Assembly: GCA_023212695.1 (NCBI GenBank)
Contig: JALCCG010000016.1
Span: forward strand, 98,095-162,094
Direction of reading: 5' to 3'
Length of the DNA: 64,000 nucleotides
Source of the DNA: Sporisorium sorghi
Lineage: Eukaryota; Basidiomycota; Ustilaginomycetes; Ustilaginales; Ustilaginaceae
Position numbers and translations under genes: made by a program. Positions 21,103 to 39,863 of the stretch are shown in pieces. Each line of letters starts with the position of its first letter. Position 1 is the stretch's first letter. The notes under the pieces are model-generated. The model was not told the DNA's origin, made no database searches, and saw nothing but the letters and a program-made list of their open reading frames with translations.

Positions 21103-21239
21103 CGTTTTCACCTCTGTCGATATATTTCGATTGCAAAGGATACAGCATTTTTCCATGAATGTCTGTTCTCTCGGTGTCATCGGGTTATATCCATGATGGC
21201 TTGCCCCATTTCGAATTTCGCCCGAAATTCAACTTATTT

Positions 21240-22596: not shown

Positions 22597-25500
22597 TCAA
22601 TTTCCGCTGCCAGGCTCATTCTCAGATGTCTCATTTATTTCAGATGTTCCATTCTCAGGCGTCTGCTCTTCAGAAAGCGCACTTTCATCGGACAGCTCAT
22701 AAGATACGCCATCCACAACAACCTTGTCGATTAGGGACACATCCAGCGGTTTATCCAACTTCACGATGATTTTGCTTGTATATGGCAGGTTCTGCTGTGA
22801 GTCATTGTCGGTTCCTGAGGACCCCGGTTCTTCTCCACTATCAACCGACTCGGAAGAGTCTGAGCCTGCTCCTTCTGCGTCTCCCACTGTTGTGCCCAAA
22901 TTCGAATTCGTCTGATCCTGGCTCGAACCAGAATCCGTTCCTGTTGGAGCGGTGTCCGCTCCCCCTGTTGTTTCATCCGCGCACGTCCGCGATAGTTCAG
23001 GACTTGCCGCTTCAAACAATGGGTTTGCATCCTGACCCAGGACCTGGAGATTCTCCATATTGAAATCCCGGCAAGCCGCCGATTGTTTGAAATGGAAGCT
23101 CAGTTCAGTCAAGCCCTTCTGTTCACCTTCTTCCACTACGGACGCCGTCAACAGCGGCTGCTCCGGAACGGTATCCTGCGAAACAGGAGGTACGCTAACT
23201 GGAGGCGTAACGACTGAATTCGGATCAGCAGGATCCGAAGGTGTCTTCCCGTTTTGCACCATGAGAAAGATACCGCCTGCCAAGATGAGGACAAGTGCAG
23301 CTGAAGCTATTTTTACGAACCTCGGATGGCTTCGGATAAATCTCATGAATGGCGAAGCCAGCTCAGCCCTAACCTTCGTATAGACCCCTTTAAGAACAGG
23401 GTCAGGGTTACTAAAATAAGTCTTCACATACTCCTTATTCTTGAATGCTTCGCGGTCATGGGTCTTGAAGTACTGGACGATCGCGGCAGCATAAGCCGGC
23501 ACGAGACCCCGTGGTTTAACGAATACCGGCTGCTTCGCAGACCATTGAATATACTGGTAGACCACTTCAGGACTCTTGCTGTACTTATGTACATAATCCA
23601 GCAGGCCACGGTAGTCAATAGCGCCGGAATGAATCTCCGTGCAGAAGGCCAAGGTGATGCTTTCAAAATGGGATGGCGCCACATCCTGCTGCAGCCACCT
23701 CCGCATAATATGCTGGGTGCGCTCCCGCTCCTCGGTTGAAAGATCGGCAAGCACCTCCGCTTTAACTTCGGTTCTGCTGCACCACTGGTACAGCGCCAGC
23801 ATGACAGCCGCTTTGGAGCGTATTCGGGAATCAAAACGTTCTACCCACCCTTTGAATTCCTTGGGCATTTGCAGAAATCCAATGTCCAGAAGCTGCTTCC
23901 GGTTCAATTGCTCAGGCTCCAATTCTCGCAAGAGAAAGAGGTTGGCTGCATAAATCATTCGGTCTGCAAATGCGGTCCCGCCTTGGTAACGACCGATCCC
24001 CCGCTCTTCGTGATGCTCCAGGGAATCCAATTGATCCAGCACGGCGTTGACCGCTCTTACAGGATCTGCATCATGCTGTAATTTATCGATGAGCTGGGCT
24101 TCAGCCAGCCTAACATAATTCTCCTGTTCCAGCAGAAGGGGATGGTTCCTCACCCATAGACTGATCAGATCAACCAGATCCGTTGGCGTTGCCCTCTGTT
24201 TCATACTGGCTTTCATATAAGGATCGAACATCAGCGCAGGCAGCCCCGGGCTGGTCAGCACCCTGGCATAGAAGGCACGGCTTAGAGCCGGACTGCCCTC
24301 CAGCAAGCCATAAATCGCCTGGGTCACATCTTGACGCTGCTTCGACAAGGCATTATTTAATGAGCGAATAAAATATTCCACAATCATGTCATTGTGCTGT
24401 CTAGGGTTGATGCTGTGATAGTCCTTCACGGACCCGGCAATCGCCGGATCGGGAACCTGTCCTCCCTTCACAAGCTCAAACTCATGGGCAAACAGGGCAA
24501 GGAACAGATCATCCAGCCGTTTCTTTAAACCCAGAGCCCCGGCTGGCTCCAGATAGAGCAGCAAGGCACGAAGCACAGCAAACTTATGGTCGGTATACAG
24601 ATCTTCACGGCCCTCTTCGATCTGGAACAGCACGCATAAATCGTCGTAGCTATCCAGAGAAATCTGGCGGGACGGCTCCATATCCGAGAGCATCTGCTCC
24701 GCGAAGGCAAAAAAACGTTCGGATCGGGCCAGATCCAGCACTGTATCCCATGCAAAATCAAGATAAGGCTGCTCGGACCATTTCAAATCCGCATTAATGA
24801 CCCTTCCGGCAGCAAGCTCAAATAAATAGTCCTTCTCAATGTTGCGGTCATTCAGGCGCAGGCCGCCCTTCTCCACGAACATGAGATGAAGTCCCTTCTT
24901 GCTGTAGGGTTCCTTGGCATACGTTACGAACCCAAGCACCCGGCGCAGCGCATAAGGCAGTCGGCCAAACAACACAAAGAGCAGCTGCTCCGCCTTCGCG
25001 GACAACTGTTCCACCGGTACATCCAGTACGATATACACCTTTTTCTTACCCGCAGCTGCGGTTATCGATGCATAGAGCAGTTGCTTGAATACCTTCTCGT
25101 CAATGCCCAGCTCCTGCAGTAAGGCCGGGGTTTGGTCAGGCGAGACAGGAACTTGCGGGTGAGCCTGAACCGGCATGGCAGATAACTCCGGCAGCTCTAT
25201 CCCCTCTTCAATATCGTAATGATTGGCAAAAGAGGCCTGAAGCCAAGTCCGGTAAGCGGAATGCTCATCTTCCAGAAATCCGTCAGGAATCACATAATGG
25301 TGCGTAAAAAAAGCGCTGCGAAGTCCCGTGAAATCCGCTGGCTGAAACACACTGCGCCCCAGCACCGTCTCCCCTGTTTCCGTATGGAACAGATGAAGAG
25401 CGGCAGGATAAGCCTCGGCGTCCTTCTCGCTGCGTGCCGTAAGCTCTGCCGGAGCTTCATACTGGCAAAAGGGATGCAGCACCTTTTTGATATAAGAGGG

Positions 25501-25614
25501 TTCCAATCCTGACGAGCGCGCAACCGTATCAAATCCTTCAGCCGAGCGAAACACGCCCCGCCGTTCCCTCGTGTACATTTGCTGCTGTATGTTTCGGAAA
25601 GGGAAATCCGGCAC
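22597..25614 (-). CDS. GTPase-associated protein 1 (GAP1)-like membrane protein
   Basis: Large protein of 1005 aa. The N-terminus (QQMYTRERRGVFRSAEGFDTVARSSG ... TGETVLGRSVFQPADFTGLRSAFFTHHYVIP) looks like the GAP1-N2 domain that comparative genomics links to DO-type GTPases. Then come about 600 mostly helical residues, one membrane segment (about 770-790, ALVLILAGGIFLMV), and an outside tail rich in Ser, Gly, Asp, Thr with a small folded part (KIIVKLDKPLDVSLIDKVVVDG). The start is GTG, overlapping the last base of the GTPase stop (TAGTG), so both are co-translated. Known: family association with GTPases. Inferred: an inside GTPase-responsive domain tethered to the membrane. Function unproven. 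Confidence 0.72.
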   Translation of the reverse strand: MPDFPFRNIQQQMYTRERRGVFRSAEGFDTVARSSGLEPSYIKKVLHPFCQYEAPAELTARSEKDAEAYPAALHLFHTETGETVLGRSVFQPADFTGLRSAFFTHHYVIPDGFLEDEHSAYRTWLQASFANHYDIEEGIELPELSAMPVQAHPQVPVSPDQTPALLQELGIDEKVFKQLLYASITAAAGKKKVYIVLDVPVEQLSAKAEQLLFVLFGRLPYALRRVLGFVTYAKEPYSKKGLHLMFVEKGGLRLNDRNIEKDYLFELAAGRVINADLKWSEQPYLDFAWDTVLDLARSERFFAFAEQMLSDMEPSRQISLDSYDDLCVLFQIEEGREDLYTDHKFAVLRALLLYLEPAGALGLKKRLDDLFLALFAHEFELVKGGQVPDPAIAGSVKDYHSINPRQHNDMIVEYFIRSLNNALSKQRQDVTQAIYGLLEGSPALSRAFYARVLTSPGLPALMFDPYMKASMKQRATPTDLVDLISLWVRNHPLLLEQENYVRLAEAQLIDKLQHDADPVRAVNAVLDQLDSLEHHEERGIGRYQGGTAFADRMIYAANLFLLRELEPEQLNRKQLLDIGFLQMPKEFKGWVERFDSRIRSKAAVMLALYQWCSRTEVKAEVLADLSTEERERTQHIMRRWLQQDVAPSHFESITLAFCTEIHSGAIDYRGLLDYVHKYSKSPEVVYQYIQWSAKQPVFVKPRGLVPAYAAAIVQYFKTHDREAFKNKEYVKTYFSNPDPVLKGVYTKVRAELASPFMRFIRSHPRFVKIASAALVLILAGGIFLMVQNGKTPSDPADPNSVVTPPVSVPPVSQDTVPEQPLLTASVVEEGEQKGLTELSFHFKQSAACRDFNMENLQVLGQDANPLFEAASPELSRTCADETTGGADTAPTGTDSGSSQDQTNSNLGTTVGDAEGAGSDSSESVDSGEEPGSSGTDNDSQQNLPYTSKIIVKLDKPLDVSLIDKVVVDGVSYELSDESALSEEQTPENGTSEINETSENEPGSGN

Positions 25615-26876
25615 TAGTCATCCCTCCCCTCAATATACTTCAGCTTGTACAGAAGCCAGATGAACGGTTCGTCCACCCGGATCGGGCTGACCACGCTCTG
25701 CAGCTTCTGATCCACAGGGTTGCTGCCTAAGGCAGACACGGCAAAATACGCTGTATTCGAAAAATATACATCCATCGTGCCCTTGAACGGACGGTCGACC
25801 TTCTCGATAAAGCGGCGAATCTCGCCATCGATATTTTCAAACTCGGTCATGTTCAAATGCTTGCGGTGCACCATATTGTTGAATATGTTGCTGTTCAGCT
25901 TCACATATTCGCCATCCTCATCCTTAAGCGCATGAAGCATATCGCTCTTGGTTAGGACGACAGCTGTCGGAATATCCGTTTTGCCCTTGTCCTCATAAGC
26001 AATGAAATCACCGAACATGGTGAGGACAACATCGCGAGGTTCATCGTACTGGGATACCCATTCGCCTGGCTGATCGCCGAACTTCAAACGGATTTTCTCC
26101 CGAATGGAGCGAATCTGGAGCGGATCGACCATAAACAGAATGCCCGCGGAGTTCTTGATGTGCTGTCCATGAAGTCCCAGGTAGTCCTCGTCCACCATGC
26201 CTTCACCCGCCACGTCAAAAAATACAAGCGTTAACGGCGGCTTCGATTCATCCTTGAACACGAATTGAAATATAAAAGGCTCCTGCATCTTCTCCTTCTG
26301 AGTAGACGCCAGCAAATCTCCGCGTTCAAACAACGGTTCCTCATATCCGGTGCGGAACTTGCGGCTGATCTCCGCATTCAGCGGCATACAGGCCGCATCG
26401 AAGTGATCCGCCGTCGTATGCTGCAATGTATGGATCAGCGAAGTCATATACACCGACTTGCCCACTTGGGATGCACCGATAATCGAGATAATGTTGCTCG
26501 GTACCTTCCCTGCGGTCACAGGCAGCTCATTATGGCATTTCGGGCATAAGCGTCTGCGTGTGACGACACCGTAGCGGTCGTTCAATCCAACCAGCACATG
26601 ATCCGAATAAATGTGATGTTCCTCCGGTATGTCGCTTGGCCGGATGATAGCCTCAATATCATAGACCGAATCCAGCCCAAAGCGTTCGCGGTAACGATTC
26701 AGCTCGTCGTCTTCCCCAAGCGCATAATCCTCGTCGTCCTCACGGTCGTGGGCAGCCCGGAAGACAACCTCCTTCGGCGTGAACTTACTGAAACAGTAAG
26801 GGCACACAATATCATAAAACAGCGGCCTTGGCTCCGGCTCCGGCTTCTTCTTGAAAATATCAAAAATGCCCATCAT
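25614..26876 (-). CDS. Zinc-ribbon TRAFAC/DO-type GTPase
   Basis: Protein of 420 aa. A split zinc-binding site, C25-x2-C28 and C111-x2-C114, frames an acidic insertion (43-60). The P-loop GASQVGKS lies at 134-141, the G3 motif DVAG (FFDVAGEG) about 80 residues later, and a G4-like TKSD specific for guanine near 305. The order of motifs and zinc ribbon match the DO-GTPase2 type (predicted conflict or signalling GTPases) as I remember the family. Start ATG with GGAGGT five bases upstream. Coupled to the GAP1-like gene downstream, its probable partner. Confidence 0.75.
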   Translation of the reverse strand: MMGIFDIFKKKPEPEPRPLFYDIVCPYCFSKFTPKEVVFRAAHDREDDEDYALGEDDELNRYRERFGLDSVYDIEAIIRPSDIPEEHHIYSDHVLVGLNDRYGVVTRRRLCPKCHNELPVTAGKVPSNIISIIGASQVGKSVYMTSLIHTLQHTTADHFDAACMPLNAEISRKFRTGYEEPLFERGDLLASTQKEKMQEPFIFQFVFKDESKPPLTLVFFDVAGEGMVDEDYLGLHGQHIKNSAGILFMVDPLQIRSIREKIRLKFGDQPGEWVSQYDEPRDVVLTMFGDFIAYEDKGKTDIPTAVVLTKSDMLHALKDEDGEYVKLNSNIFNNMVHRKHLNMTEFENIDGEIRRFIEKVDRPFKGTMDVYFSNTAYFAVSALGSNPVDQKLQSVVSPIRVDEPFIWLLYKLKYIEGRDD

Positions 26877-26949
26877 TTGTACCTCCCTCTAAACCTCTGG
26901 ATTGCATGGACGCTTTCGTTGTTGTCACTGTGTTCTATCTCTGCTCTCT

Positions 26950-27591
26950 CTATCTATACACCAGCTCATACCGTTGTCCATACTTCTTCCCGTCCGTAAA
27001 AAACAGGCGTACATAATCGTTCTTACCGACCTCAATGACGGGCAGTACATTCCGTCCGGCCGCAAAATCCGTAACGAACGGGTACAATATCCCGTCTTCC
27101 TTGTTCACCGGATAAGCTCCCTCTTTCTTCACATAGCAGAGAGCCTCCTTCGGTACAGGCACTTCGGCTGTAACCTGAATTTCAATCGTTTTATAGGATT
27201 GCAGCCAGCGGCTTTTTTCGCGAATGGAGTATACCAGCATGGCTTTACCGGTGCTGAACTGAATGCAGTTCGCTTCATCGGGCTGTGTGATCAAAGTGGT
27301 CTCCCCGTTTTCAGAAGAGAAGGCATACACCGTATATGAGATCTGCCCAACACCATCCACACGATCCCGATAACCATTATTCGCCTTGTATTCGTCTCTG
27401 GTATACAAGCGCAGGCTGCCAAGATGCGGATCTCCATTCGATGCGGCGAATTCGTCATCCATCACACGTTGAATGTATACCGCTTGAAGACCAGGCGGCC
27501 AGTTCCAGCGAATCGTGCAGAAACCTTCGTCCAATTGATGGCTTAATCCCTGAATAACCCAATCTCCGGGCTCCGCATTTTTATACTGCAT
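26950..27591 (-). CDS. Small beta-rich protein of the GTPase/tubulin operon
   Basis: Product of about 213 aa, no recognised family and no signal or membrane segment. Alternating hydrophobic strands (LQAVYIQRV, CIQFSTGKAMLVYSIRE, KTIEIQVTAEVPVP, DYVRLFFTDGKKYGQRYELVY) suggest two beta-sandwich or FN3-like domains. The ATG at 27591 has AGGGGG nine bases upstream; a longer frame from 27648 would overlap the preceding vWA gene by 41 bases. Being always inside the same transcription unit, it is likely a soluble partner of the vWA protein or the GTPase. Confidence 0.7.
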   Translation of the reverse strand: MQYKNAEPGDWVIQGLSHQLDEGFCTIRWNWPPGLQAVYIQRVMDDEFAASNGDPHLGSLRLYTRDEYKANNGYRDRVDGVGQISYTVYAFSSENGETTLITQPDEANCIQFSTGKAMLVYSIREKSRWLQSYKTIEIQVTAEVPVPKEALCYVKKEGAYPVNKEDGILYPFVTDFAAGRNVLPVIEVGKNDYVRLFFTDGKKYGQRYELVYR

Positions 27592-27607
27592 ATCGAACGC
27601 CCCCTGC

Positions 27608-28873
27608 TTAAAATCCTCGGCTTGTCGAATCATTCGGCCGTTGTCCACGTCCTGTTCGGCCCGGCCGCTGCGTGCCGCCAGTTAACCTGCCGTTCTCCTT
27701 GACAGGTATCACCAGCGTGAACAAGGTCATCATACCTGCGAGGATGAAGCATGCCAAGAGACGCACACTGGCATCTCTGACTTCTCCCCCGGAGAGGCCA
27801 AATTCCAGAACAACGCCCGCCAGTAAGCCCGATACCGCACCGCCTATGCTAAAACTGCGCGCGAGATAACGGTTGTCAAACACCAGGCCGAGCGCCAGAC
27901 CCATGGCAGTGCCAATGAGCAGCATCGCAGCAATTCTTCCGATCTGATAATAAACGCTGTCTTCCATAGCGCCCGTTCGCTTCGTCAACAGCGAACGGTC
28001 CCCGACATCATCATAAATTTTCTGAAAAACAAAAGACAAATCTGCCGCATTCTGCACATCGTAATATTGCCCGCCCGTCTCGGCTGCAATCGTTTGAAGC
28101 AGATTGGCACCATCCTTATACACGAGGCTAAGGCCAATCGTATTCACCGCGATTTGCTGCTGCTTGTAGTCCGCAAGCACACGATCATGGTCGGTTTCGC
28201 TAAATCCGTCTGACAGCATAATGACCATGGCGCTTCGCCCCGCATCCTGGCTTTCCTGAATATGCGACATGGTATCCTCAAGCGCGAGACTAATGTCCGT
28301 ACCACCGTCAGTTGTTGCCAAACCGTCGATTTCCGCCATGATCTCATCCTTGATTTCCTGGTTCTTCACACGGGTAAATGGCTGCAGTAACGTTGTTGCA
28401 TGATCAAACACGATCACCGATACCCTGTTATCCCGATCCATGCGGTTGATCAGATTTTTGGCTGCTGTATAGCGATCCTGATTCGGGTCGGTATCCTTCA
28501 TGCTGCCGGAATTGTCTATGACCAGAACAACGTCCTTCACGGGCTTGGCGCTGCCCGGGTTCAGCTGGTACACCCACTCAAACAGCAGGCCAAGCAGGAA
28601 CAGTGCCACCAAAGTGGATGGAATCAGCAGCTTCCACGATGTGCCCGTGTATCGCTGTCTCCAGGAGCTCCCGCTCAAACGGGGGGAGATCAATTCTGCG
28701 ATTAAGCAGGCCAAGCCGATGCAGAAGGCCAGAATCCCGAAATAGATTCCCGTAACCACAATAACGGGAAGCCCTGTTCCCCACTGGCGGAGCAGAAATT
28801 CCCCAATGGCAAATCCAATTCCCCCGCCGACCAGACTCAACAGCAGCAGGAGAGGGTTTATTTTTCGTTGCAC
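27608..28873 (-). CDS. Membrane-embedded vWA-domain protein
   Basis: Protein of 421 aa. Three N-terminal membrane segments (about 7-27, 36-62, 82-103), a von Willebrand factor A domain with the complete metal site DNSGSM (120-125), T and D loops (TTDGGTDISLAL, MLSDGFSETD), and three C-terminal membrane segments with a glycine-rich turn. The vWA lies between membrane spans, probably outside. Ends in a basic Arg/Gly tail. GTG start with only weak ribosome site; follows the 794-aa gene by 37 bases. vWA domains bind partners in a Mg2+-dependent way; the second vWA protein of the same operon is the likely counterpart. Confidence 0.82.
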   Translation of the reverse strand: MQRKINPLLLLLSLVGGGIGFAIGEFLLRQWGTGLPVIVVTGIYFGILAFCIGLACLIAELISPRLSGSSWRQRYTGTSWKLLIPSTLVALFLLGLLFEWVYQLNPGSAKPVKDVVLVIDNSGSMKDTDPNQDRYTAAKNLINRMDRDNRVSVIVFDHATTLLQPFTRVKNQEIKDEIMAEIDGLATTDGGTDISLALEDTMSHIQESQDAGRSAMVIMLSDGFSETDHDRVLADYKQQQIAVNTIGLSLVYKDGANLLQTIAAETGGQYYDVQNAADLSFVFQKIYDDVGDRSLLTKRTGAMEDSVYYQIGRIAAMLLIGTAMGLALGLVFDNRYLARSFSIGGAVSGLLAGVVLEFGLSGGEVRDASVRLLACFILAGMMTLFTLVIPVKENGRLTGGTQRPGRTGRGQRPNDSTSRGF

Positions 28874-28910
28874 AATACGCGCCTACTCTCTTTATCAGAA
28901 TCTAAGAACG

Positions 28911-31295
28911 CTAGCGCAGCTCCGGGAGCAGCGCCGGTTCCATTCCATGAAATTCATAACCGTTCGCCGTATAGGTTTCGTAGTAAGCTCTGCCATTCCG
29001 GTAATACATCAGATCCTCCAGATGGAAGCCCCCCATCAGATTCAGCTTCTCGACCCCGCTGGAGCGCTTCTCATGCACGATGCCAAGCTTGTATACTCGT
29101 AATGCTTCATCCGCACGGATGGCGTAGCGAACGAATTCGCTGTCGGCATCGCCGAAGAAATATTTCTCTTCATATCGATGCTCCTGCGTATAGTCCAGCA
29201 GCCTGACCAAAGTAACGGAATTCTCCTCCAGCATCCGGTAGAGCACCTTAAACAAATCTTCCTTGGCAAGCACCTGCTTGTTATGATACTCGATGGTTAC
29301 GTTCGCCCGGCGCAGCAGCTCCTCCTCGAAGGTCTGCACAAACGGCTCTGCCGTCAATAAATCCCTTAGACAGACTCGAATCATATTGGCCAGGATCGGC
29401 TCCGTACCTTCGTGAGTGAGAACGGATAAATTGCCGACATAGCGATCCTCGAAGAATACAGCCGCGCCGCGCTTACTTTCCAGCTCCAGCATCAGCTCCT
29501 CGGTCACCAGGCCATAATACTCCATCAAGTTCTGACCGATATAATCGTCTGCCGTGCGGATACTGGACTGAGCTGCTTCCAGCAATTCTGCTTCCAACTG
29601 GTCCAGCATGCTCGCTTGCTGCTTGTAATGCCGGTGAATCTGCTCAAGCTCCGCCTCATATAACCTGTACAGCGCAAGTTCGGTCTCCAGAAGCAGCAGC
29701 TCATACCTGCGATGATAAATATCGCCTACAAAAAAACGAATGAACTGGCGCACGTTCTGTTTATCCCGAAAGGGCAGTTTCTTGAAGGGCTGGGTTTCCA
29801 CGCTTTCTTCATAATAGCGGGTTAGTCCTTCCTGCTCCGTCTTCAGCAGGTTGCCGAGATCCCGGATTCGGGAACGGACCGCTTCGAGCAGGATCCCCGC
29901 TCCACCCTTGTCGCTTGTCCACTCCACGATTTGATAACAGCCGATATGCGGATGTGTGGACAACGAGCGGCGAAGGGCAGCGTGTACTTCTTCGGCTGTG
30001 CTCGTATCCCTCAGTCTCTTCTGGACCTCCAGCTCATAATTGCTATGGAAAAACTGCTGGCAGCCTTCTCCGAACAGTGCCTCTTCGGCCTCGCGGATAT
30101 TCATCCGCTTCAGTCCGGCATAACTGACAGGATGGGACATCATGCCTTTCAGTCCGTCCAGATGTTCGACATTCGGGAGCATCCGGTTCGCTCTAGCCGT
30201 TACGGCTTCCGGGTCGAGGCCGAAGTAAGTCAGGCATTCCTGTACCTCCGGTTCAGGTCCGGTCTTCATGCGCTGGAGAAGTCCCCGGCAGAGATGATAG
30301 AGGACCGTTAAGGCAATCGGCTCGTTCGGCCTTTTTACCCGGGCAAAGCCAGCCGAGACAAAGCCTTGGCGACCGGATTCGGTCATGATGTTGCTTTTGA
30401 AGGATGTATTGTTGTAAACGCCTCTGATCCCGTCATATGCCTCGTCCTTCTGCTTCCGATTCTTAAGCAAGCCGAGATGACAGATGATATCATAGATATC
30501 CTGCATGCCGGAGTAACCGGAGATGCCCCGCTCATTCTTATCGGACAGCACGTAGACCAGATCAAACAACGGCGAAGCCGGGTGAACGACCGGGATGCTC
30601 AGTCCATCCTCCGTCATTTGAAGCGGTGCGGAGAAGCTGTAATCCCGGCTCTGCATCAACTCAAGCTCCCGTAAGAAGGCGACCCCCACGGAGCTCGCAT
30701 AGCCATAGGTTTCAATCTGCTCCCTCTCATTGATTAGCGCGTACAAATCCATCTGCACCGATTTGAACGACTGATTGAAGATGGATTCTGCCAGTAATGA
30801 AATTTCCGGGATAAATACATTAAACGGGTCATCGACCCGTGTAATGATAGACAGATGGACCCGGTCAAAAGACGAATAACTGCGTCCATAATCTGAAATA
30901 TGGTGGCTCAACTTCCGAATGGCTTTATTTAACCCAGACAGGGGGCCCCGTTCTTGATAGAACGCCTGATACAGCTCTTTGCGCAAGGACTTGGACGCAC
31001 CGTCTGCCACCGGCAGATCCAGTTGATAACTGTGAAGACGATTGGAGGATTCGGAGCCTTTCGGCCCCGGCCTGCCGCCACGGTCCGTTCCCACATGAAA
31101 ATAGATGACGCTAGCGCTGTTGTCCCATTTGCGGTCATGAATCTCCATGATCGGTTCGATGGCTGCCGCCGTCATATCACCGATGAACAAGTATACCTCC
31201 GGGTAGTGGATGCTGCTCTGATCATCCTCCATCAAGGTAAGCTGCTCTTCCGACTTGGCATAGCCGGCAGCATACTGGCGAAGAATTTCCCTCAT
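28911..31295 (-). CDS. Uncharacterised 794-aa protein co-encoded with the tubulin-like GTPase
   Basis: No known family seen. The N-terminal 180 residues contain beta strands of a nucleotide- or tubulin-like alpha/beta fold (VYLFIGDMTAAAIEPIME, SVIYFHVGTD); the middle is mixed; residues 470-620 are long charged helices that look coiled-coil (ELLLLETELALYRLYEAELEQIHRHYKQQASML). No signal or membrane segments. It starts three bases after the tubulin-like gene, so fixed stoichiometry with it is likely; an adaptor or filament-binding role is inference. The same pair occurs, as far as I recall, in other Tubulin_2 operons. Confidence 0.75.
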   Translation of the reverse strand: MREILRQYAAGYAKSEEQLTLMEDDQSSIHYPEVYLFIGDMTAAAIEPIMEIHDRKWDNSASVIYFHVGTDRGGRPGPKGSESSNRLHSYQLDLPVADGASKSLRKELYQAFYQERGPLSGLNKAIRKLSHHISDYGRSYSSFDRVHLSIITRVDDPFNVFIPEISLLAESIFNQSFKSVQMDLYALINEREQIETYGYASSVGVAFLRELELMQSRDYSFSAPLQMTEDGLSIPVVHPASPLFDLVYVLSDKNERGISGYSGMQDIYDIICHLGLLKNRKQKDEAYDGIRGVYNNTSFKSNIMTESGRQGFVSAGFARVKRPNEPIALTVLYHLCRGLLQRMKTGPEPEVQECLTYFGLDPEAVTARANRMLPNVEHLDGLKGMMSHPVSYAGLKRMNIREAEEALFGEGCQQFFHSNYELEVQKRLRDTSTAEEVHAALRRSLSTHPHIGCYQIVEWTSDKGGAGILLEAVRSRIRDLGNLLKTEQEGLTRYYEESVETQPFKKLPFRDKQNVRQFIRFFVGDIYHRRYELLLLETELALYRLYEAELEQIHRHYKQQASMLDQLEAELLEAAQSSIRTADDYIGQNLMEYYGLVTEELMLELESKRGAAVFFEDRYVGNLSVLTHEGTEPILANMIRVCLRDLLTAEPFVQTFEEELLRRANVTIEYHNKQVLAKEDLFKVLYRMLEENSVTLVRLLDYTQEHRYEEKYFFGDADSEFVRYAIRADEALRVYKLGIVHEKRSSGVEKLNLMGGFHLEDLMYYRNGRAYYETYTANGYEFHGMEPALLPELR

Positions 31296-31298
31296 CGT

Positions 31299-34200
31299 CT
31301 ATTTCAACCTTCTTCGAATGTCGTTTAATTTGGAGGATACCTGTCGGTAGAACTGGTACCGCTCTTCGCCGTCCGCTAGCTCCACCTTCTCGTATTCCAA
31401 CCGATCGCGCGTCTCCAGGAAACGCTCAGCCAATTCCTCCAGCTTACCGAGCAGCGGCGTAATATCTTCGGAAGCGGTCAGTTCCTGATCCCGGCGGGAA
31501 GATTTGCGCAGCAGCGTGCTCCGGATTTTCTCATCCAGCTGGCGGAAATGCTTGTAGACTTCATACTCCACGTCATTCACGCTTTTCAGCAGATTGGCAA
31601 ACGGCTCCCAGGAATCCTCTTCCGGATCGCGGTCATAGACGAACAGCGCACCCTTCTTGGTAATGGTCCCGGTATACATTGCCTCGATAAATTGATCCAG
31701 CCATTTCTCCTCATTCTGATTGTCGCTGATCAAGAGCTCGAATGTCGTGATTTTGGCGGCGATGGCGGCATACTTCTTCAACTCTTCACGCACGCTGCGA
31801 ATCATTTCCGGTGAACGGATCAAATTCTCTTTAGCCATATCCTCATTGATGCTGTTGAAGATATCCTTGGACCCCACCGGCTCGAGGCCTTCGTTCATCA
31901 GCCGCTTCAGCTCCGTCCAGGCCCGCTTCACTTCGCCCAGATTAGGCTTAGGCGTGTCCAGCTGAAGATCATAGGCACGAAGCAGCTCGCTGAGATCAAA
32001 TGGCTTCGTGAACACAACCGCATAACGGCTGCTTGTATTCTGGTCCACATCCTTCTCCATGATAACTTTATACGTAAGTGCCTGGTTGAATTCTGCACGA
32101 ACCCGGGCGTTATAATCCTGAACCCGCGGGTTGATATAAGTATCGCCCCAGGACTTCTCAGGAATCGGCGAAGGCAGGTAGGTCCAGTTGTTGCGGTCTG
32201 TCTGCACCAAATGACGCCCTACGCCTTCCTTGTCCATGATGGTGCGTTCGTAACTCTCCTCATAAACCTTAAGCGGCGTGTAAACGAACAGCGGCACACC
32301 GTTCTTTGTATTCAACCAGAATATCCGATTCTTCACTTCACTTTCCTTCACCGTGAAATGGGATTTACCCACCGAATTGTTCTGGTAATTGCGAATGCCC
32401 TTCAGAATGCTTGGCGCCTGCACAGGCACGGACACAAAGCCCCAGGATGGGAAGTACAAATTGCCCGCGCTGTTGCTCAGATGGAAGACCGGCACGGCTT
32501 CATCATCCAGCTTGCTGGCGATGTTGCGCTCGACGAACTTTTCGATGGAATCCTCCTGCCCGAATTTCATGGTCAGGAAGTCCTCCATCGAGCGGGTGAT
32601 CAAATCGCCGAATTTGTCCGTCAGAAACTCGGAGATGGATCTGACGATATCAATCTCCTGCTCCCGGGTCCAACGATTGGCATGGCTCAGCAGTTCCTGT
32701 GCGAAATCCCGGATGAGATCGTCCACATCTTTTTGATCCATGATTTTGTTGATCACATCGGAGATGTCAGGCACGCTGACCAAGTTCCAGTAATACGTCT
32801 TGTTCCCTTTATGATCCTGCTGTTCATCACCGTTGACAAGGATGTCCCCGTTCTTGGCAAATATGGAGTTCAGCGCGTTCAGAATTTCGGTATATACGCT
32901 ATAAATCCGGTTGTTCTCCTGGTTGAGCAGATCGTATAAATCCTCATAGAATTCAATCATCTGCTCGGTGCGTTCCACATCGGCTTCCAGCCAGTATTCA
33001 TTGATCTTTGCTTCAATATAGATGTTCTTCTTCTTATCCTTCGAGACAAAAGCACTCTTCGCATCGCCCAGGCGTTCGATCGCCTGTTCTCTGGCCGACT
33101 CGATATCGCGGGGAATGCGGGTCAGGTTCTCCCGGAGCGTTTCGATGTAAGACAGCAGCATCTTCAGCAGGCTGAAGCCCTTCTCCGTATAAATCAGACG
33201 GGATACATAGAACGGTCCTTGCTGCGGATGCAGGAACATCCGGCGGATTTGGTCGCTGAATTGATCCACGATCTCGCCTGGAAGCTGCTTCTTCGCTTTG
33301 ATGTATTCCTCACGGGCTCTGGCGAGAAAATTCTGCTCCAGCTCCGTATCCATATTAATGACCTGATTCTTCACCACATTGGCATAGCTGAGCCGCTCGC
33401 TGTTCTGATACCCGGGCAGCGGCTCCGGTACGCGGGACTCGAAATTCTTCGTCATTGAGTCCAGGTCGATGCCCAGCTTGCTTGCAAACTTCTCAACGTC
33501 CTCCTGGCTTGGCGCTTTCTCGAACATGGTTTGCATTTTGCCAAATACGCGGTATGCCAGATAGGTGGTCATCTCCTCGATAGGCAGCACGGCCGAGGAT
33601 GCTCCGATAATGTTGTAATCGTAATTGGCAGGATAGGCTTTGTTCATCTGGGCAATGTTGGTTCGGATGTTGCTGATATAATCATGGATTGCAAACTCTT
33701 CGCCGGACTGCTTTTCCTCGCTGGCCATGAAGTTCGTGATATTCTCGGCGGTGACATTCATGCAGTAATCATAGGCGTTCTCCAGCAGTTTGCCCTCCGT
33801 ATTGGTAGCAGAGATGAGATGGCACAGATTAAACGGAGGCAGCGGCGAATTCACGCTCAGAATACTGCCATACTGCTGCTTGAACCGTTCGCCTCTGGCA
33901 TCCACGTTCATCCAGTAGTCAAGCTCCTTCAGCGCCGCATATCCGTTCTTCTTGATGTACTCGCGTGTGTGCTCGCTCAAGCTTTTGTTAGCCAGATTGA
34001 TATCCGGCGTAAACAGATAACCGAGTGTGTTCACACGGTCAATCCCCGCAGAGCCGTGATCGCGCTCAATAATGCCGCGGACGATATAAGCAATATCAAG
34101 GAAGCAGCCGCTGCCTGTCCCGCCGGACAATCCGGTCAACAGGAAGACCATCAGCTTTTTGTTGGTGCCCACCGATAATGTCTTAATCTTCTTGTCGATC

Positions 34201-34688
34201 GCTTGCACCACTTGGGTGATTTTCGTAAACAGAAGCAAGCGGCCGGCCTGACGGACACCGGCTGCCCCGTTCATTCCATCGGTAATGCTTAGCTCCGGCG
34301 ACAGCCAATCCGTAATGTACGGCTCCAGGATGCTGCGATTCTGAAGGAGCCCTCCAATCTCCGCATTCGAGAGAAGCACGAATTCATTGATCGGATCAAG
34401 CCCTATTCCCTTATAGCGTTTATTCTTATCCTGTTCGTTGGTCTCAAAAGCCAGAAACTCCACATTGTCCGGCTTGTCCATTCTTTTCTTGGACAAGGGA
34501 TCCTCCGGCAGCTTAAATCGGCGGTTAATCTGATATTTCAGGCGCAGCAGCGCATCGATCCCCGTGCCTCCAAGTCCAATGATGAGAATCGGGTTGTCGA
34601 TGGTATCCACTCGTATTTTCTCACTGACAATCCCGCCTCCGAGTGAAACGTCAAGCTGTTGTATATGTTCTCTAACTACCGGTTTCAT
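31299..34688 (-). CDS. Tubulin/FtsZ-like GTPase (Tubulin_2 type), 1129 aa
   Basis: Huge tubulin-like protein. A Rossmann-type start ILIIGLGGTGIDALLRLK (34-51) resembles the first FtsZ/tubulin loop, and the tubulin signature SGGTGSG lies at 188-194 (FLLTGLSGGTGSGCFLD). The GTPase part covers about the first 400 residues; the remaining 700 are largely helical with coiled-coil stretches (480-560, 650-700) and have no recognised domain. No membrane segment. The ATG at 34688 has AGGAGGGG five bases upstream; a longer frame to 34730 lacks one. Family members are predicted cytoskeletal GTPases; polymerisation is not shown. Confidence 0.85.
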   Translation of the reverse strand: MKPVVREHIQQLDVSLGGGIVSEKIRVDTIDNPILIIGLGGTGIDALLRLKYQINRRFKLPEDPLSKKRMDKPDNVEFLAFETNEQDKNKRYKGIGLDPINEFVLLSNAEIGGLLQNRSILEPYITDWLSPELSITDGMNGAAGVRQAGRLLLFTKITQVVQAIDKKIKTLSVGTNKKLMVFLLTGLSGGTGSGCFLDIAYIVRGIIERDHGSAGIDRVNTLGYLFTPDINLANKSLSEHTREYIKKNGYAALKELDYWMNVDARGERFKQQYGSILSVNSPLPPFNLCHLISATNTEGKLLENAYDYCMNVTAENITNFMASEEKQSGEEFAIHDYISNIRTNIAQMNKAYPANYDYNIIGASSAVLPIEEMTTYLAYRVFGKMQTMFEKAPSQEDVEKFASKLGIDLDSMTKNFESRVPEPLPGYQNSERLSYANVVKNQVINMDTELEQNFLARAREEYIKAKKQLPGEIVDQFSDQIRRMFLHPQQGPFYVSRLIYTEKGFSLLKMLLSYIETLRENLTRIPRDIESAREQAIERLGDAKSAFVSKDKKKNIYIEAKINEYWLEADVERTEQMIEFYEDLYDLLNQENNRIYSVYTEILNALNSIFAKNGDILVNGDEQQDHKGNKTYYWNLVSVPDISDVINKIMDQKDVDDLIRDFAQELLSHANRWTREQEIDIVRSISEFLTDKFGDLITRSMEDFLTMKFGQEDSIEKFVERNIASKLDDEAVPVFHLSNSAGNLYFPSWGFVSVPVQAPSILKGIRNYQNNSVGKSHFTVKESEVKNRIFWLNTKNGVPLFVYTPLKVYEESYERTIMDKEGVGRHLVQTDRNNWTYLPSPIPEKSWGDTYINPRVQDYNARVRAEFNQALTYKVIMEKDVDQNTSSRYAVVFTKPFDLSELLRAYDLQLDTPKPNLGEVKRAWTELKRLMNEGLEPVGSKDIFNSINEDMAKENLIRSPEMIRSVREELKKYAAIAAKITTFELLISDNQNEEKWLDQFIEAMYTGTITKKGALFVYDRDPEEDSWEPFANLLKSVNDVEYEVYKHFRQLDEKIRSTLLRKSSRRDQELTASEDITPLLGKLEELAERFLETRDRLEYEKVELADGEERYQFYRQVSSKLNDIRRRLK

Positions 34689-34760
34689 AATTTCCCCTCC
34701 TGATAGGTCATGGCTTAAGAGGTTGTTCAAAAAGTCCGCTTTTGATCATGAACACGCACT

Positions 34761-36548
34761 TTAAGCCAAATATTCAAATAATATGGTCTTGTCAGCCTGC
34801 TGCAGGGAAACTCTCAGCCGGTCTCCGTTCTTCAGTTCCGTCCCTTTCGTGGCATCCAGGGCACGTCCCGACTTCTCAATCACAGCCGAAGAATTATTTC
34901 TAAGCATGATGCGATCATTCTTGCCCGGCGTGAACAGAATCTTCTCCGTCTCCTTCAGCTCAGGTGCCAGCTGCAGAAGCTGGTGCAGGTTGAACTTCCC
35001 TTTGAATGAAGTCAGCTTTTTGTATTGCGGGAAGGTCTTCTCGCCGGTATTCTCATCCCTGATTTCAATCACGATCTGACCGACAAAGCCCTTGTTCGCT
35101 TTCTTAATCGCGCCTAGTATGAAATAAGCTCCAGCCCCCATAATGAGCAGAGCAGCGATGCCAATGATTACGGGCCATAATGGAAAAGGTTTCTCTTCAT
35201 CGCCTGCGGTCAGCTCATTCCCACCGCTGCCGGAGCCCGCGGCGGCTGCTTTCGCACTGATCTTCACAGGCGCGCTTTCGCGGTAGAAGCTCTGCTCCTC
35301 CGCCCTTACCCGCAGCTCATAGTCATGCTTCTGCGGAATTTTGTAACTCCCTTCAAAGCTGCCGCCTTTGTTCTCCAGCTCGACCTCCGACTCGTCACCG
35401 GTGTCGAGATCCTTCACCAACAGCTTGGCCTTCATGTTGCCGTACAGCTCATTGTTTTGCAGCTTCTGTCCGTTGCTGACAAGATACGCGTTAATATCGA
35501 TTGTATCCCCTGCCTTCACCTTCGATGATGACGGAGGATCCATGGTCAGCTCCAGATCGTAGTTGAACACAAGATTGATATCGATTTTGTCTTTGGATAC
35601 ACCCTTCACCTGCAGCTTCCAATCGCCCTGCTGCGGCTTCAGCAGCTTGAGAAGCGAGTAGGAATTGGATGTGGAGCGCATGACATTAGCCGATGGAATG
35701 CTCTGCTCAGCACCAGTGGGGTCCATCAGTTTAACGTCCACGGGACTTGAGGACATAATGGAAATATTCGCTTCCAGCACGTTTGCATTCGGTACGTTGA
35801 CCGTGACCTCCTGATAGCTGCCATTGCCGGTAATCGACTGCACGGGTACAATCTTGAGCTGCTGGTGGCTGGCAAAAATCTCGCTTAGAATTTGCGGCAA
35901 ATCATCCGCCGAGCTCGTGGTAAAGGATTTTCCTCCCGTTTGGTTCGCCAGCTCAGCCAAAGCCTCTTTATTCAGCTTCCCGTCGGCGTTCAGACCAATC
36001 GTATAGATCGGGATGCCGCTTCCTTTGGCCTCCTGAACCGCCTGGTTCAAATGATCTGACGCTTCTTGGCTCGTCTTGCCTGTGTTGGGGTCCAGATCAT
36101 TGTTACCGTCGGCCAAAACAACGATCATGGGTGCATGAGCCGGGTCCATGCCCTGCTTCAGCACCTTCACCGCTTCATCAAGACCTACCGAAATGTCAGT
36201 GTAAGGACCGCGGTCCAGTTGGTCGATAAACTCCTTTAGCGCCGTTTTGTCCGCCTCCGATTGAATTTCCAGCAGTGCCTTCTCCCGCTGAATCCGGTCG
36301 GTATAGGAAACAACGCCGACTTTGTCGCCGGTTGTGGACAGCATGTCGATGAACATCTTCATTGCTTCGCTGCCGATTCTGTCAGGATCACTGTTTTTCA
36401 TCGAGTTGCTGGCATCCATCACCAGAACGGCATCTATCTTGGAGCCTTGCGAGGCTGCCATTGCCTGAGGCAAGGTTCCCCCGCTCCAGGTCACGATCAG
36501 CAGCGCTGCTGCCATCAGACAGAGCAGCCATTTATTGTTACGTAGCAT
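34761..36548 (-). CDS. Secreted vWA protein with one membrane anchor and FHA-like C-terminal domain
   Basis: First gene of the minus arm, 595 aa. Signal peptide (1-31, QAMAAS), vWA domain with metal site DASNS (45-49) and ADGNNDL, an Ig-like region (about 230-420), a low-complexity Gly/Ser/Ala hinge, a membrane segment (about 455-478) and an inside domain of about 115 residues whose last part (KNDRIMLRNNSSAVI ... LKNGDRLRVSLQ) resembles a forkhead-associated fold, though the canonical phosphothreonine-binding residues are not clear. ATG at 36548 has GAAGGAG eight bases upstream. A receptor-like layout: ligand-binding vWA outside, signalling domain inside. Confidence 0.82.
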   Translation of the reverse strand: MLRNNKWLLCLMAAALLIVTWSGGTLPQAMAASQGSKIDAVLVMDASNSMKNSDPDRIGSEAMKMFIDMLSTTGDKVGVVSYTDRIQREKALLEIQSEADKTALKEFIDQLDRGPYTDISVGLDEAVKVLKQGMDPAHAPMIVVLADGNNDLDPNTGKTSQEASDHLNQAVQEAKGSGIPIYTIGLNADGKLNKEALAELANQTGGKSFTTSSADDLPQILSEIFASHQQLKIVPVQSITGNGSYQEVTVNVPNANVLEANISIMSSSPVDVKLMDPTGAEQSIPSANVMRSTSNSYSLLKLLKPQQGDWKLQVKGVSKDKIDINLVFNYDLELTMDPPSSSKVKAGDTIDINAYLVSNGQKLQNNELYGNMKAKLLVKDLDTGDESEVELENKGGSFEGSYKIPQKHDYELRVRAEEQSFYRESAPVKISAKAAAAGSGSGGNELTAGDEEKPFPLWPVIIGIAALLIMGAGAYFILGAIKKANKGFVGQIVIEIRDENTGEKTFPQYKKLTSFKGKFNLHQLLQLAPELKETEKILFTPGKNDRIMLRNNSSAVIEKSGRALDATKGTELKNGDRLRVSLQQADKTILFEYLA

Positions 36549-36856
36549 TGATTTTACTCCTTCACCCATTTAATCTAGCATTTGAGGATGCCTATGTTCG
36601 ATCCTCTAATCTAACTGTAGGCATTAAGTCTTAAAAATATATGAAAAAAAGCTTAAAAACGATACATCCACTTTCATTTCCTTGGTATGTTTATATAGGA
36701 AATACCATGCAACTCACTAAAATATCCCAGTACTATGTCCATATGATATAATTATACCTGCCAAAGTTCAACATAATCAGTGTATCACCCGGACTTAGGA
36801 CACAAGGCTCATTCACCATTTTCACCCCCATTACGATACCGGAAAGGAATAGGTAT
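36549..36856. other. Divergent promoter region of the GTPase/tubulin system
   Basis: AT-rich space between the two arms. TATAATTATA at 36747-36756 offers a -10 box on either strand, without a clear -35 match. TGGTAT (36683-36688) and ATACCA (36702-36707) form an inverted repeat that could be an operator for the minus arm. Nothing else stands out. Confidence 0.45.
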
Positions 36857-37009
36857 ATGATTACATACGGATGTCTCGGGATTTTGTTTCTTTTTGTCAT
36901 CATCAAGATCACGGCATACTTCAAACGTAAGAAGAACGCCCCGACACCGGAGCAGCTGCACCAAACGCTGCTAGAAGTCGCCAATTCAAAGAGGGAACGG
37001 CATGGATAA
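36857..37009 (+). CDS. 50-aa single-span membrane peptide
   Basis: ATG at 36857 with AAAGGA nine bases upstream opens 50 codons: a hydrophobic segment (YGCLGILFLFVIIKITAYF, residues 4-22), then KRKK and a charged helix ending ANSKRERHG. Its stop overlaps the start of the zinc-ribbon gene by eight bases, so it is the translationally coupled first gene of the plus arm. Too short for usual gene calling; no family recognised. Orientation by the positive-inside rule puts the C-terminus in the cytosol. Confidence 0.7.
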   Translation: MITYGCLGILFLFVIIKITAYFKRKKNAPTPEQLHQTLLEVANSKRERHG

Positions 37010-37937: not shown

Positions 37938-37952
37938 AGGGGCTATACCGTT

Positions 37953-39863
37953 ATGACGATAAAAAACACGCTAACCCTGCGTAATCTGTATTTTTTTCTA
38001 TGTATAGTCCTTCTGTTGTTGATTGGATATAAGGGCGTTCATATCTATCAAAAAATCCAGACGATGGCGCAAGCCGAACGATTGTATGCTCAGAAGAAAC
38101 TCGTTCAGGCTGAGGAGTGGTATCAGAAGGCAAGCCGAAACCACTCCCTTCTATATAAAGAAGCGTTGCTGGCCTCAAGGCTTCAGGAGCTCGCCCCCAT
38201 TACGTCTATGAAGCAGAATCTCTCCTCTCTAGATCAACGGTTGAATCAAGTGGGAGAAGCAGGCGACTTTTCCGCCTTCATGAACGTATATGCCGAGTTG
38301 CTTGATGCGGAGGAGAAGCTGACGGGGCACCAGGGATCATACGCTTCGTATTACGATGAAATTGTTGCGTTCTATGGCATACCCGATGATGTGAAGCGAA
38401 TTTTCCTGCAATTCATCGGTTTGTTTAACCGCCAGGCCGACGAGCAGCTTGAAGAGTTGCAGTATGATGACAACAGCTTTAAATGGAACTTGCTTCGCAT
38501 CCCGGACTCATTCTATGGCGGCGAGAAGCAGAAGGATGAGAAGCTGCTCAGCCTGTTCCAGCGTTACGATGAGACGGTAATGACCCGGTTGGCAGGAGCC
38601 GGACATTACGCCGAGCTGCTAAACTGGTCCCATGCCATAAGCTCCGAATATGCCAGCCGTTCAGTGAAGGCTGCTTGGGTGAGCGGCAAGACAGATGAAC
38701 TTGTGCTTGCCATGCTGCAAAAGGATGCACAGCGGGAACGGCCGGCAGACTTTGTTTCACACGCCAAGGGTTACAGAGACTACTTGAATCGGAGTAATCA
38801 ACAGAATTCGGATATGCTGGAGTATATTCAGAATCAGATCAACCGGTGGATCCTGGCTGCGGATGAAATGGTAACAGAGCAGAACTACGAGGAAGCTGTA
38901 GCGCTCTATGAAGCGCTGTCCGGGTACCAGGATATGAGCAGACCATTGCAAGCTGCAAAATTGGCCTGGACTATTCACTATCCCATTCGTTTGTTCAATA
39001 TGGCAGATATTCAAGGCAACTTTAGTTATGTCAGCGGAGGTGGGAAACGTTTCGGGGGATTGGCATATGCCATTGGAGTCGATGAGGGGAATATTATCTA
39101 TCTAGCGGTTTTAAATGCCGATGAAAGCGTGCAATTATTCCAAAATCATGATTTCCCGTCTGAAATCGCGATCCGCCAAGTTTCAATTGAAGAATCGCTC
39201 AGCACGGAGACAAATCCGGTCGTCCTGGTGGAAGGCGGCACAGGAACCGATCTGGTATGGTATTCAGCCTATGAAGCCAGGGCTTCCAATCTGATTCCGC
39301 TGTTCCAGTTTACCGCCGAAAGCTATCAAATCCTGCCGGATAAGTCTCTGCTGGTTACCAACTTCGAAGGAGCAAGCCCGGAAGAGATCGCCATCTTCGA
39401 GCGTCAGGGAGATCAATACGGATTCACAGGGTTTCAGCCCAATTATACCGACATCGATATTGCTGATATCGAAAGTCACCGGAACAAGAAAGTCCGCTTC
39501 ACCATCAATATCCTGGCAGGGGGCTATGGTGAAGCCCTTGCTGAACGGGATGGCCACTATGTGATCTTAAGAGGCGAGCTGGATTTCCCTGCGGGGAGTG
39601 CAAGCATTATAGGAACGTTTAGCGAGTATCAGCAGATGGAGATACCAGGCAGCCAGGCCCCTCCTGCCTCCGACCCGACCGAACCGGAGGATATACCAGC
39701 TGAGGGCGATTCCATGGAGGAAACGGATATTCCAGGAGATTCCGTCCCCACCGAGGTAATCAATCCTGAGGATGCCCAACCAGACAACAGTGAGAGTCGT
39801 GACAGTACTGAAACTGCTAAACTCACGCAGGTTCCTGTCATTCAGGTAGAATCGATAGAATGA
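37953..39863 (+). CDS. Membrane-anchored 636-aa protein of the GTPase/tubulin system
   Basis: Single N-terminal membrane segment (about 9-27, LYFFLCIVLLLLIGYKG), then an outside part: helices like TPR repeats (AERLYAQKKLVQAEEWYQKAS; NYEEAVALYEALSGYQD), a beta-rich middle (about 350-560) and a disordered acidic, Pro-rich tail. No known family for the whole. It follows the zinc-ribbon gene with GAGGGGC before its ATG, and ends the plus arm at an inverted repeat (39891-39919). A surface-exposed partner for the vWA proteins is a reasonable inference. Confidence 0.75.
   Translation: MTIKNTLTLRNLYFFLCIVLLLLIGYKGVHIYQKIQTMAQAERLYAQKKLVQAEEWYQKASRNHSLLYKEALLASRLQELAPITSMKQNLSSLDQRLNQVGEAGDFSAFMNVYAELLDAEEKLTGHQGSYASYYDEIVAFYGIPDDVKRIFLQFIGLFNRQADEQLEELQYDDNSFKWNLLRIPDSFYGGEKQKDEKLLSLFQRYDETVMTRLAGAGHYAELLNWSHAISSEYASRSVKAAWVSGKTDELVLAMLQKDAQRERPADFVSHAKGYRDYLNRSNQQNSDMLEYIQNQINRWILAADEMVTEQNYEEAVALYEALSGYQDMSRPLQAAKLAWTIHYPIRLFNMADIQGNFSYVSGGGKRFGGLAYAIGVDEGNIIYLAVLNADESVQLFQNHDFPSEIAIRQVSIEESLSTETNPVVLVEGGTGTDLVWYSAYEARASNLIPLFQFTAESYQILPDKSLLVTNFEGASPEEIAIFERQGDQYGFTGFQPNYTDIDIADIESHRNKKVRFTINILAGGYGEALAERDGHYVILRGELDFPAGSASIIGTFSEYQQMEIPGSQAPPASDPTEPEDIPAEGDSMEETDIPGDSVPTEVINPEDAQPDNSESRDSTETAKLTQVPVIQVESIE

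What the first reader, a model, noticed from the sequence alone, without database searches (positions are those of the whole stretch)
22597..39863. A 17-kb GTPase/tubulin/vWA system in two divergent arms
Eight co-directed or divergent genes encode a 1129-aa tubulin-like GTPase, a zinc-ribbon TRAFAC GTPase, a GAP1-like membrane protein, two vWA proteins, a 794-aa unknown, a beta-rich protein, and on the other arm a zinc-ribbon membrane protein, a 50-aa membrane peptide and an anchored surface protein. Overlapping starts and stops suggest assembly into one complex that spans the membrane, with a filament-forming GTPase inside and vWA sensors outside. GAP1 and DO-GTPase families have been proposed from comparative genomics to act in conflict or signalling systems, but I know of no experimental role.
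Basis: partly seen in the sequence, partly recalled or inferred. Interest (0 to 1): 0.88.

Follow-up and report, generated by a model that had tools for sequence, protein, structure and literature searches.

The report
Paenibacillus two-tubulin GTPase membrane locus
Ten neighbouring genes in a soil bacterium look like one machine that spans the cell membrane and joins a tubulin-like protein, a companion tubulin that lacks the GTP-binding loop, a molecular switch and outward-facing sensors; machines of this type have been predicted before from genome comparisons, but I found no experiment on one.

Summary
In detail: window 22597-39863 carries two divergent arms, seven leftward and three rightward genes. 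It is a member of a described kind, the firmicute tubulin theme of GAP1-N2/DO-GTPase systems (Kaur 2020), whose tubulin family is FtsZl1 (Makarova & Koonin 2010). Added here: the 794-aa 'unknown' (F) is a second tubulin-fold protein; the GGTGSG loop present in 97 of 97 G proteins is absent from 97 of 97 F proteins. The beta-rich protein models as two FNIII domains. The right arm belongs to the system: over 295 Paenibacillaceae genomes, right-arm protein K occurs in 170, each also with G; one further genome has only a weak G match. All 80 best loci and 16 of 20 further Bacilli regions keep the gene order. G had no match in plasmid, phage or viral collections. Most likely mechanism (inferred): a membrane-spanning envelope sensor in which DO-GTPase/GAP1 controls an active/pseudo-tubulin assembly. 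Defence and membrane remodelling remain live rivals. Interest is moderate: the kind is known in silico, its function is open, and this makes it more testable.

The parts
34761..36569 (-). H: secreted, membrane-anchored vWA protein (signal-like segment, vWA, beta domains, TM, cytosolic tail)
   Evidence: Pfam VWA over cut-off; VWA in 18 of 18 members; D46, S48, S50 invariant in 18; two hydrophobic segments
31299..34688 (-). G: Tubulin_2 (FtsZl1-type) protein, 1129 aa, GTP-binding loop intact
   Evidence: Pfam Tubulin_2 E 4.5e-77; GGTGSG in 97 of 97
28911..31295 (-). F: second tubulin-fold protein, 794 aa, without the tubulin G-box
   Evidence: Tubulin_2 in 13 of 22 relatives at E <= 0.1, not in the window's own copy; fold; GGTG in 0 of 97
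27608..28873 (-). E: multi-TM vWA protein
   Evidence: Pfam VWA over cut-off; six hydrophobic segments
26950..27591 (-). D: two FNIII domains, no signal-like or TM segment (ORF runs on to 27648; start moved by comparison)
   Evidence: AF2 mean pLDDT 88.1; FNIII matches; relatives; no fn3 match by sequence in 21 members
25614..26876 (-). C: DO-GTPase with N-terminal CxxC motifs
   Evidence: DO-GTPase2 29.8 bits against cut-off 27; Walker A and DVAGE in 97 of 97, TKxD-type motif in 95 of 97
22597..25614 (-). B: GAP1 (N2 and M domains), C-terminal TM and polar tail
   Evidence: Pfam GAP1-N2 E 1.5e-47, GAP1-M E 6.6e-25; C-terminal TM in 90 of 97
36570..36856 (.). intergenic region between the arms, presumably with both promoters
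   Evidence: read; a TGATATAAT-like site towards J is seen by eye in several loci; no motif general to all loci was found
36857..37009 (+). J: 50-aa single-TM peptide
   Evidence: tblastn match in 72 of 80 loci; TM mini-ORF before K in 87 of 97; one ORF with K in L021
37002..37937 (+). K: zinc-ribbon protein with a TM hairpin and a soluble C-terminal domain
   Evidence: 80 of 80, 16 of 16 block-bearing Bacilli regions, 170 of 295 genomes; four cysteines invariant in 21 of 21
37953..39863 (+). L: N-terminally anchored surface protein; accessory
   Evidence: 36 of 80 loci, 15 of 16 (21-26% identity); TPR_2 in 7 and SH3_3 in 4 of 18 members at E <= 0.1

Best explanation
This is a GAP1-N2/DO-GTPase/tubulin system of the firmicute type. 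Shown: its parts, their co-inheritance, an intact GTPase motif set in C, an intact tubulin G-box in G and its absence in the tubulin-fold protein F. Inferred: the outward vWA proteins (E, H) and the anchored surface protein (L) sense or bind the cell wall or surface. H, E, K, J and the GAP1 membrane segment carry that state inward. The DO-GTPase switches with GAP1 as partner and sets the assembly state of a G-F (active/pseudo-tubulin) structure at the inner face of the membrane, with the FNIII protein D as adaptor. The output would be local reorganisation or reinforcement of the envelope under stress, possibly including phage attack. My odds: identity of the system 0.95; F a pseudo-GTPase partner of G 0.5; envelope-sensing role 0.4.
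For: Domains; F fold and lost G-box; D as FNIII. Same order in 80 of 80 and 16 of 20 regions; K and G in the same genomes. Block gene trees agree with each other. Slow C and G (85 and 83% mean identity in 25 Paenibacillus genomes) and fast B, K, F (40, 46, 53%). Membrane segments in B, E, H, J, K, L and none in C, D, F, G. SH3_3 in 4 of 18 L proteins, a domain associated with wall binding (recalled; PMC7159879 section 29 also calls bacterial SH3 peptidoglycan-binding). PMC11237479 (passages only) notes a DO-GTPase in phage-shock operons, predicted to act in membrane stress.
Against: No experiment. F and G are not significantly alike by BLASTP (E 0.34) and weakly by profile comparison (probability 3.6%, E 0.012). 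Foldseek alone gave no match at E <= 0.001 for F, and its model is only fair (mean pLDDT 70.4, pTM 0.49). The site could bind GTP without the canonical loop. No common regulatory motif. Fast-evolving parts also fit an arms race. The block moves to new neighbourhoods and partly conflicts with rpoB (6 of 16 strong splits).
Confidence: 0.4

Rival explanations
1. A biological-conflict (anti-invader) system, as Kaur et al. 2020 propose for GAP1-N2 systems: variable parts sense an invader, DO-GTPase/GAP1 is the trigger, and the tubulins build a structure that contains the invader or kills the cell.
For: Same kind of locus as in PMC7159879 section 29. Fast B, K, F, D, E and L. Patchy presence: 31 of the 150 nearest genomes by rpoB lack it. 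Flanks vary.
Against: No match of G in 72,556 plasmid and 50,697 phage records, nor in viral contigs. PADLOC gives the nine larger block proteins one match at E <= 1 (0.023). Of ten neighbours one, a PLD-domain protein, matches PADLOC models, by its common domain. One fixed gene set and order rather than swapped effectors. No recognisable toxic effector among the parts.
Confidence: 0.3
2. A membrane-remodelling or cell-shape cytoskeleton, as Makarova and Koonin 2010 propose for FtsZl1: G (with F) forms membrane-bound polymers that deform or organise the membrane; the vWA and TM proteins are anchors rather than sensors.
For: G is FtsZl1-type; many membrane partners; PMC2875224 (parts 1-3 of 5 read). 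G is strongly constrained.
Against: 31 of the 150 nearest genomes lack it, so it is no basic shape system. The elements known to make FtsZ filaments were not recognisable in FtsZl1. It does not explain the DO-GTPase/GAP1 pair.
Confidence: 0.25
3. F is not a partner of G but a decayed or repurposed tubulin with an unrelated role, or it still binds nucleotide through a changed loop.
For: F evolves fast (53% against 83% for G); its T4 region is replaced by other conserved residues (TRVDDPLN-like pattern in 79 of 97), which could be a new site.
Against: F lies directly downstream of G in 80 of 80 and 16 of 16 block loci; the replaced loop is itself conserved; the F and G trees do not conflict at strong splits.
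Confidence: 0.3
4. The right arm (J, K, L) is only a neighbour, not part of the system.
For: The arms are transcribed apart, and L is missing from many loci.
Against: K is beside the left arm in 80 of 80 and 16 of 16 block loci; K and G have the same distribution over 295 genomes but for one weak G match; K shares 10 of 11 strong splits with the left-arm tree.
Confidence: 0.02

Closest known systems
Firmicute tubulin theme of GAP1-N2 DO-GTPase systems (Kaur, Burroughs, Iyer, Aravind 2020, PMC7159879)
   Same: GAP1-N2 with polar C-terminal extension, DO-GTPase, two tubulin-domain proteins with coiled coil, two vWA proteins (one multi-TM), FNIII protein
   Different: Section 29 does not mention the divergent J-K-L arm or a missing G-box in one tubulin; figures and source data were not seen. 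The YtkA domain was not recognised here
FtsZl1 family and its vWA/GTPase operons (Makarova and Koonin 2010, PMC2875224)
   Same: G: N-terminal FtsZ-like domain, long C-terminal part, beside vWA and a GTPase gene
   Different: No OmpA-type partner among the block proteins; F lacks the G-box that marks the superfamily; GAP1, FNIII and right-arm proteins are not in the parts of the paper that I read
Two-subunit tubulins such as eukaryotic alpha/beta and bacterial BtubAB (recalled)
   Same: Two tubulin-fold proteins encoded together and perhaps used together
   Different: There both subunits bind GTP (recalled); here F lacks the G-box, and both proteins carry large extra C-terminal parts

Membership tests
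Kaur 2020 GAP1-N2 tubulin theme | GAP1-N2 and GAP1-M domains | tested here: met
   B: E 1.5e-47 and 6.6e-25, both over cut-off
Kaur 2020 GAP1-N2 tubulin theme | DO-GTPase with conserved Walker B glutamate | tested here: met
   C: DO-GTPase2 over cut-off; DVAGE in 97 of 97; that this is the Walker B glutamate is my reading
Kaur 2020 GAP1-N2 tubulin theme | two N-terminal zinc ribbons on the GTPase | tested here: inconclusive
   A CxxC motif in 97 of 97; two CxxC pairs in the window copy, enough for one ribbon
Kaur 2020 GAP1-N2 tubulin theme | FNIII-repeat protein | tested here: met
   D models as two FNIII domains; no fn3 match by sequence
Kaur 2020 GAP1-N2 tubulin theme | two tubulin-domain proteins with C-terminal coiled coil | tested here: met
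   G by Pfam, F by fold and by relatives; helix 511-581 in the F model; the coiled coil of G was not tested
Kaur 2020 GAP1-N2 tubulin theme | one vWA protein with YtkA domain | tested here: inconclusive
   H has vWA plus weak MG2 and hemicentin-type matches; YtkA not among the families shown (25 of 29 shown)
Kaur 2020 GAP1-N2 tubulin theme | one multi-TM vWA protein | tested here: met
   E: six hydrophobic segments in the window; 5 or 6 in 94 of 97
Kaur 2020 GAP1-N2 tubulin theme | polar C-terminal extension of GAP1 | tested here: met
   B: TM at 766-784 followed by a Ser/Glu-rich tail
Kaur 2020 GAP1-N2 tubulin theme | role in conflict with invaders | not testable with these tools
   needs phage and plasmid challenge
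FtsZl1 (for G) | N-terminal FtsZ-like domain with the GTP-binding loop | tested here: met
   Tubulin_2 E 4.5e-77; GGTGSG in 97 of 97
FtsZl1 (for G) | vWA and GTPase genes in the operon | tested here: met
FtsZl1 / tubulin GTPase (for F) | GGGTG(S/T)G-type loop | tested here: not met
   GGTG in 0 of 97; a looser pattern hits 1 of 97, not inspected. F is filed as tubulin-fold, not as a tubulin GTPase
FtsZl1 / tubulin GTPase (for F) | tubulin/FtsZ fold | tested here: met
Known anti-phage systems in PADLOC 2.0.0 | match to a component model | tested here: not met
   Nine block proteins (J not scanned): one match at E <= 1, at 0.023

The most novel reading that the evidence does not exclude
G and F form an obligate hetero-assembly of an active tubulin and a dedicated pseudo-tubulin, whose growth is gated by the DO-GTPase/GAP1 switch and read out across the membrane through vWA proteins and a wall-binding surface protein: a bacterial tubulin machine coupled directly to the state of the cell wall, unlike FtsZ, TubZ, CetZ or BtubAB.
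Probability: 0.25. Interest if true: 0.8.

Novelty: new member of a known kind. Interest (0 to 1): 0.5.

Why it matters
GAP1-N2/DO-GTPase/tubulin systems are known only from genome comparison in the papers I found, and the published guesses (conflict, membrane remodelling) differ. This locus gives a clean model: single copy, fixed order, culturable hosts, a ten-gene parts list with the divergent arm included, and a concrete biochemical prediction (one tubulin with and one without the GTP-binding loop). If the pair works as proposed, it widens what tubulins do in bacteria from tasks inside the cell to coupling with the wall outside.

Tried and rejected
Shared regulator: a YTTAAN-N5-YTTAAN direct repeat upstream of H looked striking in a few loci but occurs in only 9 of 97 intergenic regions; rejected as a general signal. 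Profile comparison of the F and G alignments was too weak to use alone, as was BLASTP. Neighbouring genes as part of the system: the chitinase and the symporter of the window are matched in 2 and 1 of 80 loci, so the block ends at B and L. Mobile-element origin: no plasmid, phage or viral-contig match of G. Solved structures found by sequence for G, K and C: none. Foldseek's top rows for F (IniA, a glucosyltransferase, BDLP) had TM-scores under 0.2; the two dynamin-like rows span nearly the whole model at rmsd above 40 and were not believed. Four weak Tubulin_2 regions (L097-L100) carry none of the block proteins and were dropped before the 97-locus counts. Genome size: among genomes copied by hand, 22 close relatives without the block had median 4.95 Mb and 43 with it 6.3 Mb; this is a partial list, not corrected for kinship, and only hints at repeated loss. 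One search used a badly chosen pattern, found nothing and only told the size of the assembly.
Full report
WHAT IS THERE. The window is Paenibacillus DNA: its tubulin-like protein is 100% identical to that of P. glucanolyticus NBRC 15330 (L003). Its assembly is 23.2 Mb in 469 contigs and holds one full bacterial rpoB plus below-cut-off matches to second-subunit-type RNA polymerase genes on three other contigs, so it looks like a eukaryotic assembly with a Paenibacillus genome mixed in (inference). ORF calls confirm ten genes between 22597 and 39863 in two divergent arms. Left arm, in order of transcription: H (secreted vWA), G (Tubulin_2), F (794 aa), E (TM vWA), D, C (DO-GTPase), B (GAP1). Right arm: J (50 aa), K (311 aa), L (636 aa).

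ONE UNIT. A genome scan with the G alignment found 287 relatives; the best 80 were kept, 77 titled Paenibacillus and 3 Bacillus sp.. These are close relatives by design. All 80 carry B, C, D, E, F, G, H in order with K divergent; J is matched in 72 and L in 36. Of 20 regions taken from other Bacilli genomes (unnamed; contig lengths of L081, L082 and L095 equal those listed for Aneurinibacillus and Brevibacillus proteins), 16 carry the same order with K, 15 of them with a weak L (21-26% identity); the other 4, chosen from weak Tubulin_2 hits, carry none. By position, a TM mini-ORF precedes K in 87 of 97 loci and an ORF of 150 aa or more follows it in 47 of 97, so L is accessory. In L021 J and K are one ORF. 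Over 295 Paenibacillaceae genomes G matches 171 and K 170; the sets differ only by G086, whose G match is weak (E 1.4e-9). Trees of eight block genes over 28 genomes contradict each other at no more than one strong split per pair; K shares 10 of 11 strong splits with the concatenated left arm and contradicts it at 1. Of 16 strong rpoB splits the left-arm tree shares 7 and contradicts 6. Mantel correlations with rpoB are 0.68-0.89 over all 28 and 0.32-0.55 within the 25 Paenibacillus, each p = 0.001. So the block is inherited, or moved, as one piece; strict vertical descent is not shown.

TEMPO AND DISTRIBUTION. Mean identities among the 25 Paenibacillus genomes: rpoB 92, C 85, G 83, H 63, D 55, E 54, F 53, K 46, B 40%. 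The two proteins with intact GTP-binding motifs are the most constrained. Of the 150 genomes nearest by rpoB 119 have G, against 51 of the other 145 (weak G086 not counted). PF13809 matches 67 of 398 Bacilli genomes and GAP1-N2 10 of 398 Bacillota. No match of G in plasmids or phages; in viral contigs 34 stretches matched a pattern and none encoded a relative. The most widely shared flanking gene family is in 16 of 97 loci.

HOW IT MAY WORK (inference). The hydrophobicity scan of the window proteins gives no membrane segment in G, F, C, D; one in J, L and near the C-terminus of B; two in H and K; six in E. A loose DxSxS motif occurs in 97 of 97 E and 97 of 97 H proteins (a stricter pattern in 77 and 80). 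The reading that fits is a membrane-spanning device: outward vWA domains and a surface protein that in some relatives bears a wall-binding-type domain; a GTPase/GAP1 switch whose genes overlap by 1 nt; a tubulin pair inside. One tubulin keeps the G-box and the other lacks it in every sampled relative, while the replaced loop is itself conserved in most; that suggests a regulatory or capping partner rather than decay.

COMPARISON. Most defining features of Kaur's firmicute tubulin theme were tested and met; the YtkA domain and the number of zinc ribbons are inconclusive, and the conflict role is not testable here (membership table). I read section 29 of PMC7159879 whole and passages elsewhere. 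Section 29 does not mention the divergent arm or a missing G-box; figures and source data were not seen, so I do not claim that these are unreported. PMC2875224 was read in parts 1-3 of 5. PMC9871819 (passages) sets Tubulin_2 proteins apart from the main FtsZ/tubulin family. PMC11237479 was seen in passages. Searches for work on this family (listings with abstract starts) showed me no experiment on it; the library holds open-licence papers only.

VERDICT. Observation confirmed; interpretation partly supported; a new member of a known kind, with two additions that make it more testable: a G-box-less tubulin partner and a co-inherited membrane arm.

Noticed in passing
G000 contigs C79 (window), C453, C107, C133, C194: The 23.2-Mb assembly holds one full bacterial rpoB (C453) and below-cut-off RNA polymerase second-subunit matches on three other contigs: probably a eukaryotic assembly with a Paenibacillus glucanolyticus-like genome mixed in.
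   Followed up: partly
protein P0121: A 98%-identical copy of G is labelled Yersinia pestis by its source; most likely a contaminated or mislabelled record.
   Followed up: no
28911-31295: Many relatives of F carry the name 'transcription initiation factor TFIID' in public records, which nothing here supports.
   Followed up: partly
17401-21180: Large secreted chitinase-like protein (GH18, fn3, SLH domains) next to the block; not conserved beside it.
   Followed up: no
L021 6612-7742: J and K are a single 376-aa ORF in this Paenibacillus anaericanus locus, which hints that they act together.
   Followed up: partly
L097-L100: Some Bacilli carry weak Tubulin_2-like proteins (open frames of about 390-625 aa) without any of the block proteins: another, unexamined kind.
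   Followed up: no
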